This document shows, piece after piece, positions 42,320 to 46,171 of a stretch of DNA of 64,000 nucleotides. The translations under genes were made by a program, and so were the position numbers. This DNA is from Phycisphaeraceae bacterium. GTDB taxonomy: Bacteria; Planctomycetota; Phycisphaerae; Phycisphaerales; Phycisphaeraceae. Within the stretch, counting starts at the first letter, position 1; every line of letters starts with the position of its first letter. Where the stretch lies: contig JAJDCS010000041.1 in assembly GCA_029260715.1 (NCBI GenBank), positions 44,090 to 108,089 on the forward strand, in the 5' to 3' direction. Below the pieces are notes generated by a model. It did no database searches and was not told the origin of the DNA. It saw only the letters and a program-made list of their open reading frames with translations.

Positions 42320-45300
42320 TCACTTGGTTTTAAACCTGCCCACCAGTTCGCGGAGTTGCTCGGCTTTGCTCGATAGCTGCGACGCGGCGGCGGCGGCTTG
42401 GTTAGCGCCTTCGGTGGCTTGACGCGACACAGCCGAGACACCCTCGACGTTGCGGCTGACCTCTTCGCTGGCGGCGGACTGCTGTTCGGCGGCGGCGGCG
42501 ATCGACTGGATCATGCCCGCCACTTCCTGTGCCCTGGTCACGATCAGGCCGAGGCTCTGCCCCGCCTTTGTGGCGCGATCCACGCCCAGGGTCACCTGCT
42601 CTGTGCCGGAGTTCATACGCTCCACAGCCTGCTGCGTCTCCGACTGGATGGCCTTGATGGACTCGCCGACCTCGGCGGTGGCCTTGGTGGTGCGGTCGGC
42701 TAGCTTGCGCACCTCGTCGGCGACGACCGCGAACCCTCGGCCGTGCTCACCGGCGCGGGCGGCCTCGATCGCGGCGTTCAACGCCAGGAGGTTTGTCTGA
42801 TCGGCGATGTCGTTGATCACGTTGATGATCTGGCCGATCTGCTCGCCTCGCTTACCCAGTTCGGCAACGCTTGCGGCGCTGGCGGTGACGGCGTCGCTGA
42901 TGCCGCGCATGCCTTGAATGGTCTGCTCGACCACTTCGCCGCCCTCTTGGGCCACCCTGCCCGACTCACCGGCGTTGTTGGCCGCGTCGGCGCTCTTGCG
43001 CGCCACCTCGACCACGGAGCAAGACATCTGTTCCACCGCTGAGGAGATCTGATTGACCTGACCGCTCTGCTCGTCCATGCCGCGTGCCATCTCTTCGCTG
43101 GAGGCGGCGATCTGCGTGGCCGCGCTTGCCACGTCGTTGGATGCCGAGGCCACCTGCGTGATCACGTCGTTCAAGGACTCCGACAGCACGTTGATCGTTT
43201 GAATGAGTTGGCTGAACTCATCAGTGCCAACGACGGGCAATGCGTCTTCGGTCAGGTTCCCGTCGGTCAGGTGGTGCAGCCGCTCCACCGCGGCGTAGAC
43301 CGGCTTGGTCGTGGCGCGTGCCATGGTGACGCTCAGCGACAGCCCGATCAGCAGCGTGGCCACGAGGGTCACGACCTCCGCGGTATGGGCCAAGGACTGG
43401 GTGGCTTCCAAGCGTGCTTCGACCCGCTTGGCGAGCGCTTCGGCCATGGACCCGATAAGCTCCACGTCCGTTACGGCGGTCGCGGTGGCGATACCGACCT
43501 CCAGTTCGTCTTTGATCAGCCTGGACGCGACTTTCTCCAGGTCTTTGATGCCGGCGCGCACCTCTTCGAGCTTGGCCAACTCGGCGTTGGTCTCGGCCGG
43601 GTCGGTACCGGCTCGGCGGATCCACTGGCCTGCCGTGTCAAGATTGGCGTAAAGCCGCCCCAGGGCCTGCTCCATAACGGCCACGTGGCGGTACTGCTTG
43701 TCGAGCATGTACTCATTCTGATGAGAGAACGCTTTAAGCCAAGCCACCTCGGTCTCCTCAAGCGCGAAGACGATCTCGGATTGGTTTTTGACCTCTTCTA
43801 TTGTGGCCCGTCCTGAATCCTCAATGGCGTGGAGGTGTTCCTTGTGGCTGTGCAACAGGCCCTCGACGATGTGCTCGATTTTCTCGTCCAGTTCGTCCTT
43901 GTGTTCTTTGTCCTGTTCAATTTCATGGAACTTTTTGGACAGTTCAGCGAAGGCATGCTCGTGGTGCTCGAGCTTCTTCGAGGCTTGCTCCATCACGCCG
44001 ATGGCAACGGGGTCGTTGTTAAATTGGCGGGCCTCTTCGAGCCGCTGCTCGAGGGCCGCGGCGGCGTGGTCGTGGTCCCGCACCGCCTGCTCGCCTTTTT
44101 GCCGGTCTTGGATCCCGTAGAGCAAGAACCGGTTCATGTACCGACCTAATTCTTCGGTGCGGACCCCGACCCTGCCGATAATGTCTTTGTACTCAACGGC
44201 GTGGCCCACGAGCGAGCTGAAGTAGAAAGTCATGCCCCACATCGCGGCCGCCAAGAAGACGAGCAGCCCGTGGCTGCCGTAGAGCTTGGGGCCGACCTTG
44301 ATGTTATTCAGCTTCCCGCTTTTGACCACCGCAAAGAGCGCCGCCAGCAGCACCAACGTGGCCAGCACGATGACCCACACCAGGGTGTTACTCTCTTCGT
44401 AATCAGCCAGGGCCGAGCCATCAAAAGCGTCGGCGTGTTCGGCGTCTTTGGCTTGGCGTTCCAACTGCTCGAAATGGCTTTTGGTGATCAGCAAGCCGGT
44501 GCCGGCGGTGTCACCGCGGGATGTCTTAGCGGCGCTGCCGTGCGTGGCCGAGCCGTGATCGGAACTACCACCGTGGTTCACAGCCTGGGTGGCGTGGCCC
44601 GACGGGGCTGACCCCGCCGCGCCGGCGAACACATTCGCGGCCCGGTCCGGTTGGGCTTCTACTTTGGCCAAGACCTGGCCCGTGACCGATTCGGGTAGCC
44701 ATTCCACTTTGCCCGTGCCCACGTCGTAGATCGCGCCCACCACTTTCACGTACCCGTCGCGCACAAGTCGCCGCGTGGACGGGCTCTCACGGAACAGGTC
44801 TTCAATCGACTGCCAGACGTTCTCCTCGATCCCTTTGGCGACCAGCTCCGAGCCTTCCAGGTGCGCGTGCTTGGCGATGGTACGCTCGACCGCGGGCTGG
44901 ATGTTGTCCACCAGCGGCGGGATGTTCCGCTCAAACCGGTGGGCGTGGCCCTGGACCACCTGGGTTACCGCCGTCACCGCGCCGCACTGGGCGTGACCCA
45001 GTACGACCAGCACCGGGGTGTTCACGTGCGCCAGGCCGTACTCGATTGAACCGATCTCGTCCGTGTCGCAAACGTTGCCCGCCACACGGATGACGAACAG
45101 GTCCATCACGCCCGCGTCGAAGACACGCTCGACCGGGACGCGCGAGTCCGAGCAGGTGATGACGGTAGCGATGGCGTGGTCGCCCTGGTTTTCGGTGCCG
45201 GCCTGGTGGAGACGGGCGGAGTCGGTGTGCGGGTGTTTCGATTTGCCCTTGGCGAACAGCTTGTTGCCAGCCTTGAGGGCTTTGAGGGCTTGATCGGGCT

Positions 45301-46171
45301 TGGGCTTGTTGGCGAACCGGGCGACATTCAGTTTGGCCGGTTCGTCAACGGCTTTGCCGGCGCGGCTCGCTTTGTCACGTGGCGCGGCGTGGGGGTCGGC
45401 GAAGGCGTTCGCGGCGCGGTCCGGGTCGGCCTCAACCTTCGCAAGGATTTCCTGGGTCTTACCCTCTGGCGCCCAGAGCACACGGCCCGAGCCCACGTCG
45501 TACAGGGCGCCCACCACCTTGGTCTTGCCGCTCTTGACCAGCTCGCGCGTGGCAGGGCTCTCGCGGAACAGGTCTTCGATTGACTGCCAGATGTTCTCTT
45601 CGATCCCCGCTTGGACCAGGTCAGCCCCGCTTAGCTGGGGGTTGTTCTTAATAGCGCGCTGGACTGCGGGCTGGATGTTGTCCACCAGCGGCGGGATGTT
45701 CCGCTCCAACTGGTGGCCGTGACCCTGGACCGCGTGTGTCACCGCTGTCACCGCGCCGCACTGCATGTGTCCCAGCACGACCAGCACCGGGGTGTTCACG
45801 TGCGCCAGGCCGTACTCAATGGAGCCGATCTCGTCGGTGTCGCAAACGTTACCCGCCACGCGGATCACGAACAGGTCCATGACACCGGCGTCGAAGATGC
45901 GCTCAACCGGGATGCGCGAGTCCGAGCAGGTGATGACCGTGGCAATCGCGTGGTCGCCTTGGTTCTCGGTGCCCGCTTGCTTGAGGCGAGCCGCGTCGGT
46001 GTGTGGGTGCTCCGCTTGGCCGTTGACAAAACGGTCGTTGCCGGCGCTGAGTTGAGCGATGACCCCGTCAGGGCTGGGCTTGGGCGAGCTTGAGCCGGCT
46101 TTAGCCAAGACCTGGCCGGCTATTAACAGAACCAGTATCACCGACAACTTCGTGATTCGCGGTAACGACAT
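42320..46171 (-). CDS. Chemoreceptor fused to two exported beta-carbonic anhydrase domains
   Basis: 1283 residues. Order: Sec signal peptide (1-24, 'LSVILVLLIAGQVLA'); beta-carbonic anhydrase 1 (about 35-230) with zinc and active-site residues Cys82, Asp84, Arg86, His135, Cys138; carbonic anhydrase 2 (about 290-490) with Cys340, Asp342, His393, Cys396. Then a Gly/Ser/His-rich linker, helix TM1 near 594-616, a short basic loop, TM2 near 630-650, and a periplasmic helical region (about 650-925, His/Glu-rich). TM3 near 925-945, HAMP and a full MCP signalling domain follow, with the hairpin tip 'AARAGEHGRGFAVVADEVRK' near 1137. Topology is consistent: both enzyme domains outside, kinase-control hairpin inside. 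GGAGG lies eight bases before ATG 46171; the open frame upstream is discarded. Likely senses CO2/bicarbonate chemistry (inference). No che genes are in the window. Confidence 0.93.
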   Translation of the reverse strand: MSLPRITKLSVILVLLIAGQVLAKAGSSSPKPSPDGVIAQLSAGNDRFVNGQAEHPHTDAARLKQAGTENQGDHAIATVITCSDSRIPVERIFDAGVMDLFVIRVAGNVCDTDEIGSIEYGLAHVNTPVLVVLGHMQCGAVTAVTHAVQGHGHQLERNIPPLVDNIQPAVQRAIKNNPQLSGADLVQAGIEENIWQSIEDLFRESPATRELVKSGKTKVVGALYDVGSGRVLWAPEGKTQEILAKVEADPDRAANAFADPHAAPRDKASRAGKAVDEPAKLNVARFANKPKPDQALKALKAGNKLFAKGKSKHPHTDSARLHQAGTENQGDHAIATVITCSDSRVPVERVFDAGVMDLFVIRVAGNVCDTDEIGSIEYGLAHVNTPVLVVLGHAQCGAVTAVTQVVQGHAHRFERNIPPLVDNIQPAVERTIAKHAHLEGSELVAKGIEENVWQSIEDLFRESPSTRRLVRDGYVKVVGAIYDVGTGKVEWLPESVTGQVLAKVEAQPDRAANVFAGAAGSAPSGHATQAVNHGGSSDHGSATHGSAAKTSRGDTAGTGLLITKSHFEQLERQAKDAEHADAFDGSALADYEESNTLVWVIVLATLVLLAALFAVVKSGKLNNIKVGPKLYGSHGLLVFLAAAMWGMTFYFSSLVGHAVEYKDIIGRVGVRTEELGRYMNRFLLYGIQDRQKGEQAVRDHDHAAAALEQRLEEARQFNNDPVAIGVMEQASKKLEHHEHAFAELSKKFHEIEQDKEHKDELDEKIEHIVEGLLHSHKEHLHAIEDSGRATIEEVKNQSEIVFALEETEVAWLKAFSHQNEYMLDKQYRHVAVMEQALGRLYANLDTAGQWIRRAGTDPAETNAELAKLEEVRAGIKDLEKVASRLIKDELEVGIATATAVTDVELIGSMAEALAKRVEARLEATQSLAHTAEVVTLVATLLIGLSLSVTMARATTKPVYAAVERLHHLTDGNLTEDALPVVGTDEFSQLIQTINVLSESLNDVITQVASASNDVASAATQIAASSEEMARGMDEQSGQVNQISSAVEQMSCSVVEVARKSADAANNAGESGRVAQEGGEVVEQTIQGMRGISDAVTASAASVAELGKRGEQIGQIINVINDIADQTNLLALNAAIEAARAGEHGRGFAVVADEVRKLADRTTKATAEVGESIKAIQSETQQAVERMNSGTEQVTLGVDRATKAGQSLGLIVTRAQEVAGMIQSIAAAAEQQSAASEEVSRNVEGVSAVSRQATEGANQAAAAASQLSSKAEQLRELVGRFKTK

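What the first reader, a model, noticed from the sequence alone, without database searches (positions are those of the whole stretch)
42320..46171. Carbonic anhydrase-chemoreceptor fusion: a candidate CO2/bicarbonate sensor
One 1283-residue protein joins a signal peptide, two periplasmic beta-carbonic anhydrase domains with complete zinc sites (Cys82/Asp84/His135/Cys138 and Cys340/Asp342/His393/Cys396), three membrane helices, HAMP and a full MCP signalling hairpin. The topology is self-consistent. Exported enzyme domains on a chemoreceptor suggest that CO2 hydration itself, the local pH/bicarbonate it produces, or zinc/bicarbonate occupancy is the signal. I do not recall a described receptor of this build.
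Basis: partly seen in the sequence, partly recalled or inferred. Interest (0 to 1): 0.95.

Follow-up and report, generated by a model that had tools for sequence, protein, structure and literature searches.

The report
Chemoreceptor wearing tethered carbonic anhydrase
A bacterial chemotaxis receptor carries two copies of carbonic anhydrase, the enzyme that interconverts CO2 and bicarbonate, on what is predicted to be its outer side; the same build recurs in well over a hundred related proteins, and it would likely let swimming cells sense inorganic carbon or the pH shift it causes, which is untested.

Summary
The missed domain models as a helical bimodular (HBM/McpS-like) sensor; the two CAs model as a pair resembling the tandem algal enzyme 1ddz. 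It is no artefact: 178 of 201 retrieved proteins join CA to an MCP tip, and 200 of their 202 CA domains keep the catalytic set. All 166 members that parse with three TMs keep 160-340 residues between TM2 and TM3, so CA was added to complete receptors rather than replacing their sensor. CA is the best conserved part (median pair identity 55%; MCP tip 49%, sensor domain 17%). Free exported relatives of this CA sit beside MCP genes more often than background (7 of 100 against 7 of 725). The genome has CheA, CheW, CheR and FliG. Best reading: an enzyme-coupled inorganic-carbon/pH chemoreceptor. The sensing role is inferred; a housekeeping enzyme merely moored to a receptor is a serious rival. My literature searches found no description.

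The parts
42320..46171 (-). whole gene, 1283 aa (CA-CA-TM-TM-HBM-like-TM-HAMP-MCP), stop included
46179..46183 (-). GGAGG, ribosome-binding-site-like, 7 bases before the ATG
46094..46171 (-). signal-like peptide, residues 1-26
   Evidence: hydropathy; 172 of 178 family members have a hydrophobic N-terminal stretch
45422..46072 (-). carbonic anhydrase domain 1, residues 34-250, zinc site C82/D84/H135/C138, R86
44648..45298 (-). carbonic anhydrase domain 2, residues 292-508, zinc site C340/D342/H393/C396, R344
44381..44629 (-). His-rich linker, residues 515-597
44324..44380 (-). TM1, residues 598-616 (the extra helix that carries the CA heads)
   Evidence: hydropathy
44207..44263 (-). TM2, residues 637-655
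   Evidence: hydropathy
43376..44206 (-). HBM-like periplasmic sensor domain, residues 656-932
   Evidence: predicted fold
43319..43375 (-). TM3, residues 933-951
   Evidence: hydropathy
43169..43324 (-). HAMP, residues 950-1001
42323..43168 (-). MCP signalling hairpin, residues 1002-1283

Best explanation
This is a chemotaxis receptor with two intact carbonic-anhydrase zinc sites that are predicted to face the periplasm, and it likely uses the tethered enzyme to equilibrate CO2 with bicarbonate and protons right at the receptor, so that its separate ligand-binding domain would report inorganic carbon or the accompanying pH shift to the chemotaxis kinase. Shown: one frame with CA-CA-TM-TM-sensor-TM-HAMP-MCP, complete zinc sites, a conserved family, and CheA/CheW/CheR/FliG genes in the genome. 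Predicted: export and topology, pairing of the two CA domains, the HBM-like fold. Inferred: (1) CA turns over in the periplasm; (2) the HBM-like domain, whose studied relatives bind small organic acids, reads bicarbonate, pH or another small anion set by the CA; (3) HAMP and the hairpin pass this to CheA; (4) taxis results. Why an enzyme would be needed: uncatalysed CO2 hydration has a half-time near 19 s (rate constant recalled, arithmetic), much slower than the roughly one-second sampling of a swimmer (recalled), so a receptor that reads bicarbonate or pH could follow CO2 gradients in real time only with CA beside it.
For: Two complete zinc sites; 200 of 202 CA domains in 178 CA-MCP proteins keep C-D-R-H-C, so the enzyme is under selection in this setting. 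CA is the best conserved segment of 138 HBM-length receptors (55%; tip 49%, sensor 17%). CA was added to receptors that keep TM2-sensor-TM3 (166 of 166 three-TM members of 178) and hangs on an extra TM and a linker rich in A, S, G, T and H, which suits a tethered enzyme better than an in-line mechanical sensor. Free exported CAs of the same clade lie next to MCP genes (7 of 100 slots, 6 loci, against 7 of 725 elsewhere, p 6e-5), in L057 and L070 in the same direction. In the host genome it is the only CA with a signal-like start among the beta- and alpha-CAs found. CheA/CheW/CheR/FliG present.
Against: No ligand, activity or taxis data. The sensor domain is poorly conserved (17%), so no shared bicarbonate pocket is evident. 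One receptor (P0101, also L111) lost two zinc ligands yet keeps the build. The same CA clade is also joined to porins (P0103) and simple membrane anchors (L105, L107), so fusion is not specific to receptors. The full fusion is uncommon in its own phylum: in 392 genomes sampled, 18 passed 1e-60 and most of those matches cover only the MCP part or a free CA. HBM domains studied elsewhere bind organic acids, not bicarbonate (PMC5126104, PMC9600550, passages).
Confidence: 0.4

Rival explanations
1. Docking sensor: the CA heads are the recognition element (zinc-site occupancy, or an open/closed switch of beta-CA with pH), and their state is read by contact with the HBM-like domain. Turnover as such is not needed.
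Against: A conserved docking face on the sensor domain would be expected, but that domain has only 17% median identity. Trp39, a residue of the type II bicarbonate site (recalled numbering), is Val or Ile in 200 of 202 domains. The linker is long and looks flexible.
Confidence: 0.22
2. Mooring: the CA is a housekeeping periplasmic enzyme anchored to an abundant membrane protein; the receptor senses something else (for instance an organic acid) through its HBM-like domain, and CA plays no part in signalling.
For: The same CA clade occurs free (61 of 81 CA ORFs in the 80 loci lack an MCP tip), fused to porins and to C-terminal anchors. In this genome no other beta- or alpha-CA looks exported. 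Known HBM receptors bind organic acids.
Against: Does not explain why the partner is so often an MCP (178 of 201 retrieved, though retrieval favours long relatives of this protein) with two sensor-length classes, nor the adjacency of free CA and MCP genes.
Confidence: 0.25
3. The His-rich linker is the sensor: it binds zinc or changes charge with pH near neutrality; the CA heads only place or load it.
For: The linker exceeds the rest of its protein in His in 155 of 159 receptors (6.5% His overall against 1.0% in the cytoplasmic part, 3.3% in the sensor domain, 4.1% in CA).
Against: Linker sequence is not conserved, its His content varies from 0 to 24 residues, and tails of some free CAs are also His-bearing.
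Confidence: 0.06
4. The domain is a hydrolase for COS or CS2 rather than a CA, and the receptor senses reduced sulfur gases.
For: COS hydrolase is a beta-CA-fold enzyme and appears among the matches (3vqj); many relatives are sulfate reducers by record title.
Against: By sequence it is far nearer to a true CA (Rv3588c, 5e-27) than to COS hydrolase (5e-4).
Confidence: 0.04

Closest known systems
HBM-type chemoreceptors (McpS, McpK, McpQ, CtpL of Pseudomonas)
   Different: No CA heads, no extra TM or His-rich linker described in the passages seen; Pfam's HBM model does not match this protein
Exported beta-carbonic anhydrases (Rv3588c-like; tandem CA of Porphyridium, 1ddz)
   Different: Fused to a membrane receptor
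Helicobacter pylori TlpA, a chemoreceptor with bicarbonate and acid as reported signals
   Same: Chemoreceptor linked to bicarbonate/acid (start of abstract of PMC8406319 in a search listing)
   Different: dCache sensor domain (same abstract); no CA domain is mentioned there
Can2, called a CO2-sensing CA of Cryptococcus (PDB titles 2w3n/2w3q)
   Same: Beta-CA connected with CO2 sensing
   Different: Soluble enzyme of a fungus, no receptor part in the solved chain

Membership tests
beta-carbonic anhydrase (PF00484) | Pfam match above the cut-off and Cys-Asp-Arg / His-Cys set | tested here: met
   247 bits against 25.7, two stretches; residues in both copies
beta-carbonic anhydrase (PF00484) | dimeric fold, here within one chain | tested here: inconclusive
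   Model pTM 0.87; VIA-align: 357 residues on 1ddz at 2.8 A, but Foldseek's own alignment to 1ddz has TM 0.60-0.62 and rmsd 13.1 A
beta-carbonic anhydrase (PF00484) | CO2 hydration activity | not testable with these tools
   needs an assay
type II beta-CA (pH-gated, bicarbonate site) | Trp at the position of H. influenzae Trp39 (three before the first Cys; recalled) | tested here: inconclusive
   Val/Ile in 200 of 202 domains, but the marker and its numbering are recalled, and Rv3588c, the nearest solved relative, is listed as type II
methyl-accepting chemotaxis protein | TM helices, HAMP and MCPsignal with the conserved tip | tested here: met
methyl-accepting chemotaxis protein | CheA/CheW partners in the genome | tested here: met
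   FliG
methyl-accepting chemotaxis protein | control of CheA and taxis | not testable with these tools
   needs an experiment
HBM sensor domain (PF16591) | Pfam HBM match | tested here: not met
   not among the nine families at E<=1 for this protein; some relatives have weak matches, e.g. P0026 26.1 bits against a cut-off of 29.8
HBM sensor domain (PF16591) | bimodular helical fold | tested here: met
HBM sensor domain (PF16591) | conserved ligand-cavity residues | not tested
   the McpS pocket was not mapped
COS hydrolase (beta-CA fold) | nearest sequence relative is COS hydrolase | tested here: not met
   Rv3588c CA 5e-27 against COS hydrolase 5e-4

The most novel reading that the evidence does not exclude
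A widespread, undescribed class of enzyme-coupled chemoreceptors: catalysis by a tethered carbonic anhydrase is part of sensing, turning membrane-permeable CO2 into a signal that the receptor can read within a swimmer's sampling time, so that Planctomycetota, sulfate reducers and other bacteria perform true inorganic-carbon taxis.
Probability: 0.38. Interest if true: 0.92.

Novelty: new variant of a known kind. Interest (0 to 1): 0.78.

Why it matters
Chemoreceptors are known for binding ligands or partner proteins; a receptor that carries a processing enzyme on its outer face would be a different way to sense a molecule that crosses membranes freely and interconverts slowly. It offers a defined, testable family, with members in cultured type strains (Desulfopila aestuarii DSM 18488, Desulfogranum mediterraneum DSM 13871), for the question of how bacteria navigate CO2 and bicarbonate gradients.

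Tried and rejected
Assembly or frameshift artefact: rejected, since a relative in another genome has the same order at 56% identity over 98% and 178 of 201 proteins are CA+MCP (the tip regex is a lower bound, e.g. P0171 has MCPsignal by Pfam). 'CA replaced the sensor domain': rejected (166 of 178 parse with three TMs and keep the segment; 12 parse with 1, 2 or 4). Single origin of the fusion: not supported, not excluded. The first CA tree (206 rows) needed 12 changes, 6 forced by starred branches; after dropping two long rows (P0069, L015) and relabelling L026, an ORF cut by its contig end, as fused, 11 changes, 3 forced. FastTree only, no AU test. The single/multi-copy label changes 20 times on that tree and within-protein CA identity runs from 55 to 91%, which suggests repeated duplication. 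The conservation table used pieces picked by the motif C.DSR, so it is circular for those residues; searches use an HMM. My first neighbour count (8 of 101, p 1e-6) counted the L070 fusion as a neighbour and used a slightly wrong background; one search replaces it (7 of 100 against 7 of 725, p 6e-5; related loci make even this optimistic; L021 and L026 left out; three of the six loci have the MCP on the opposite strand). Alignment A2 misplaced its end and was replaced by A3; in A4 the first residues are misplaced. One search listed 120 of 725 hits and 120 of 300; both favour long proteins by the length window. One search kept the best 80 of 240. In a class sample, 88 of 397 genomes had a CA match at 1e-30, and 8 of these lie in open frames over 1000 residues (not each checked for an MCP). 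Literature: ten searches in an open-licence library. Eight looked for a CA-chemoreceptor link or bacterial CO2/bicarbonate taxis; from the listings (30 of 53) none describes a CA-MCP fusion as far as titles and abstract starts show; two papers were opened at passages only and do not. Automatic names such as 'methyl-accepting chemotaxis protein/carbonic anhydrase' exist. Gamma-CA and promoters were not searched.

Full report
WHAT IS THERE. The gene runs on the minus strand from 46171 to 42320 and encodes 1283 residues without interruption, preceded by GGAGG. Pfam finds Pro_CA twice, HAMP and MCPsignal. All ten catalytic positions (Cys, Asp, Arg, His, Cys in each CA) are present. Hydropathy gives a signal-like N-terminus and TM helices at 598-616, 637-655 and 933-951. 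The implied topology is CA outside, TM1 in, TM2 out, a 277-residue segment outside, TM3 in, HAMP and hairpin inside.

THE FAMILY. The search with the whole protein returned 725 proteins at E<=1e-3, 120 listed; a second search with the odd member P0101 brought the total held to 201, the window protein included. With an HMM for the CA, all 201 have it and 178 also have an MCP tip. The 178 carry 156 single, 20 double and 2 triple CA heads: 202 domains, of which 200 keep C-D-R-H-C. The exceptions are P0038 (Arg to His) and P0101 (first Cys to Ser, His to Asn). 166 of the 178 parse as three TMs after the CA, with TM2-TM3 spacing of 160-219 residues in 21 and 280-339 in 145; the other 12 parse with 1, 2 or 4 helices. 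172 of 178 have a hydrophobic N-terminal stretch. Among the best 80 of 240 genome loci found with a CA profile, 20 ORFs carry the MCP tip and 61 do not; of the 61, L026 is cut by its contig end and L021 looks broken in the linker. Record titles of the 20 fusions name Planctomycetota, Desulfobacterota groups, Zixiibacteriota, Sumerlaeota, Hydrogenedentota and Chitinivibrionales.

CONSERVATION. Within 138 HBM-length receptors, median identity over 400 random pairs is 55% for CA, 49% for 140 residues round the MCP tip and 17% for the sensor domain. Between the window protein and P0002: CA 75 and 72%, sensor domain 36%, MCP 72%. Free CAs of the clade are also well conserved (64-77% to the window's CA2 among the best 80), so conservation of CA is not by itself proof of a sensing role. 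The linker has 6.5% His against 1.0% in the cytoplasmic part, 3.3% in the sensor domain and 4.1% in CA, and exceeds the rest of its protein in 155 of 159.

NEIGHBOURS. Immediate non-CA neighbours of 55 standalone CA ORFs are MCPs in 7 of 100 slots (6 loci: L040, L057, L060, L070, L080, L090); among the other 725 non-CA ORFs of these loci 7 are MCPs (p 6e-5, optimistic because loci are related). L070 (Desulfopila aestuarii) has MCP / free CA / CA-CA-MCP / MCP in one direction; L057 (Melioribacteraceae) has MCP / free CA / MCP with 32 bases between CA and the second MCP. In L040, L060 and L090 the MCP is on the opposite strand.

HOST GENOME. Six MCP matches; CheA, CheR and CheW adjacent; three CheW-domain matches; FliG. 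A second beta-CA (207 aa) starts without a signal sequence; no alpha-CA; gamma-CA was not searched.

MECHANISM. CA turnover would bring CO2, bicarbonate and pH to equilibrium at the receptor; the uncatalysed reaction (about 0.037 per s, recalled; half-time 19 s) is slow for a swimmer's temporal comparison. HBM domains bind organic acids, at their dimer interface, and McpS-Tar has been read out by FRET in E. coli (PMC9600550 and PMC5126104, passages). A helical PilJ sensor domain binds nitrate (PMC6381276, passages), a small planar anion like bicarbonate (recalled). A docking version has precedents in CtpL-PstS and TorS-TorT (PDB titles). The mooring rival is supported by CA-porin and CA-anchor proteins. 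No call decides between these; I commit to enzyme-coupled sensing at 0.4.

NOVELTY. The parts are known kinds; the combination is a new variant of chemoreceptor. Eight literature searches for the link found no description, in a library that lacks most subscription journals.

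Noticed in passing
P0101 (993 aa) and L111 (G256): A CA-MCP receptor whose CA lost two zinc ligands (Cys to Ser, His to Asn) while the rest of the domain and the build are kept: a natural candidate for a non-catalytic head.
   Followed up: partly
P0103, P0154, P0159, P0188, P0193, P0194: Carbonic anhydrase fused to a phosphate-selective-type porin (PF07396); P0103 has two CAs and a porin match by Pfam, the others by the precomputed list.
   Followed up: partly
P0004 (1525 aa), P0006 (1444 aa): Receptors with three CA heads in a row, all with complete catalytic sets.
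   Followed up: partly
L070:6158-14964 and L057:2356-8297: Gene rows in which a free exported CA lies between MCP genes in the same direction.
   Followed up: partly
L104, L105, L107: Exported CAs, single or tandem, that end in membrane helices without an MCP tip in the stretch held.
   Followed up: no
L021: Looks like a CA-MCP gene whose frame is lost within the His-rich repeat linker; sequencing error or real break not decided.
   Followed up: no
window 46420-48342, minus strand: 640-aa protein directly upstream on the same strand, no Pfam match, whose sequence looks like two similar halves.
   Followed up: no
window 38400-40811, plus strand: 803-aa protein made mostly of Gln/Glu/Leu-rich coiled coil with hydrophobic stretches near the C-terminus, no Pfam match.
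   Followed up: no
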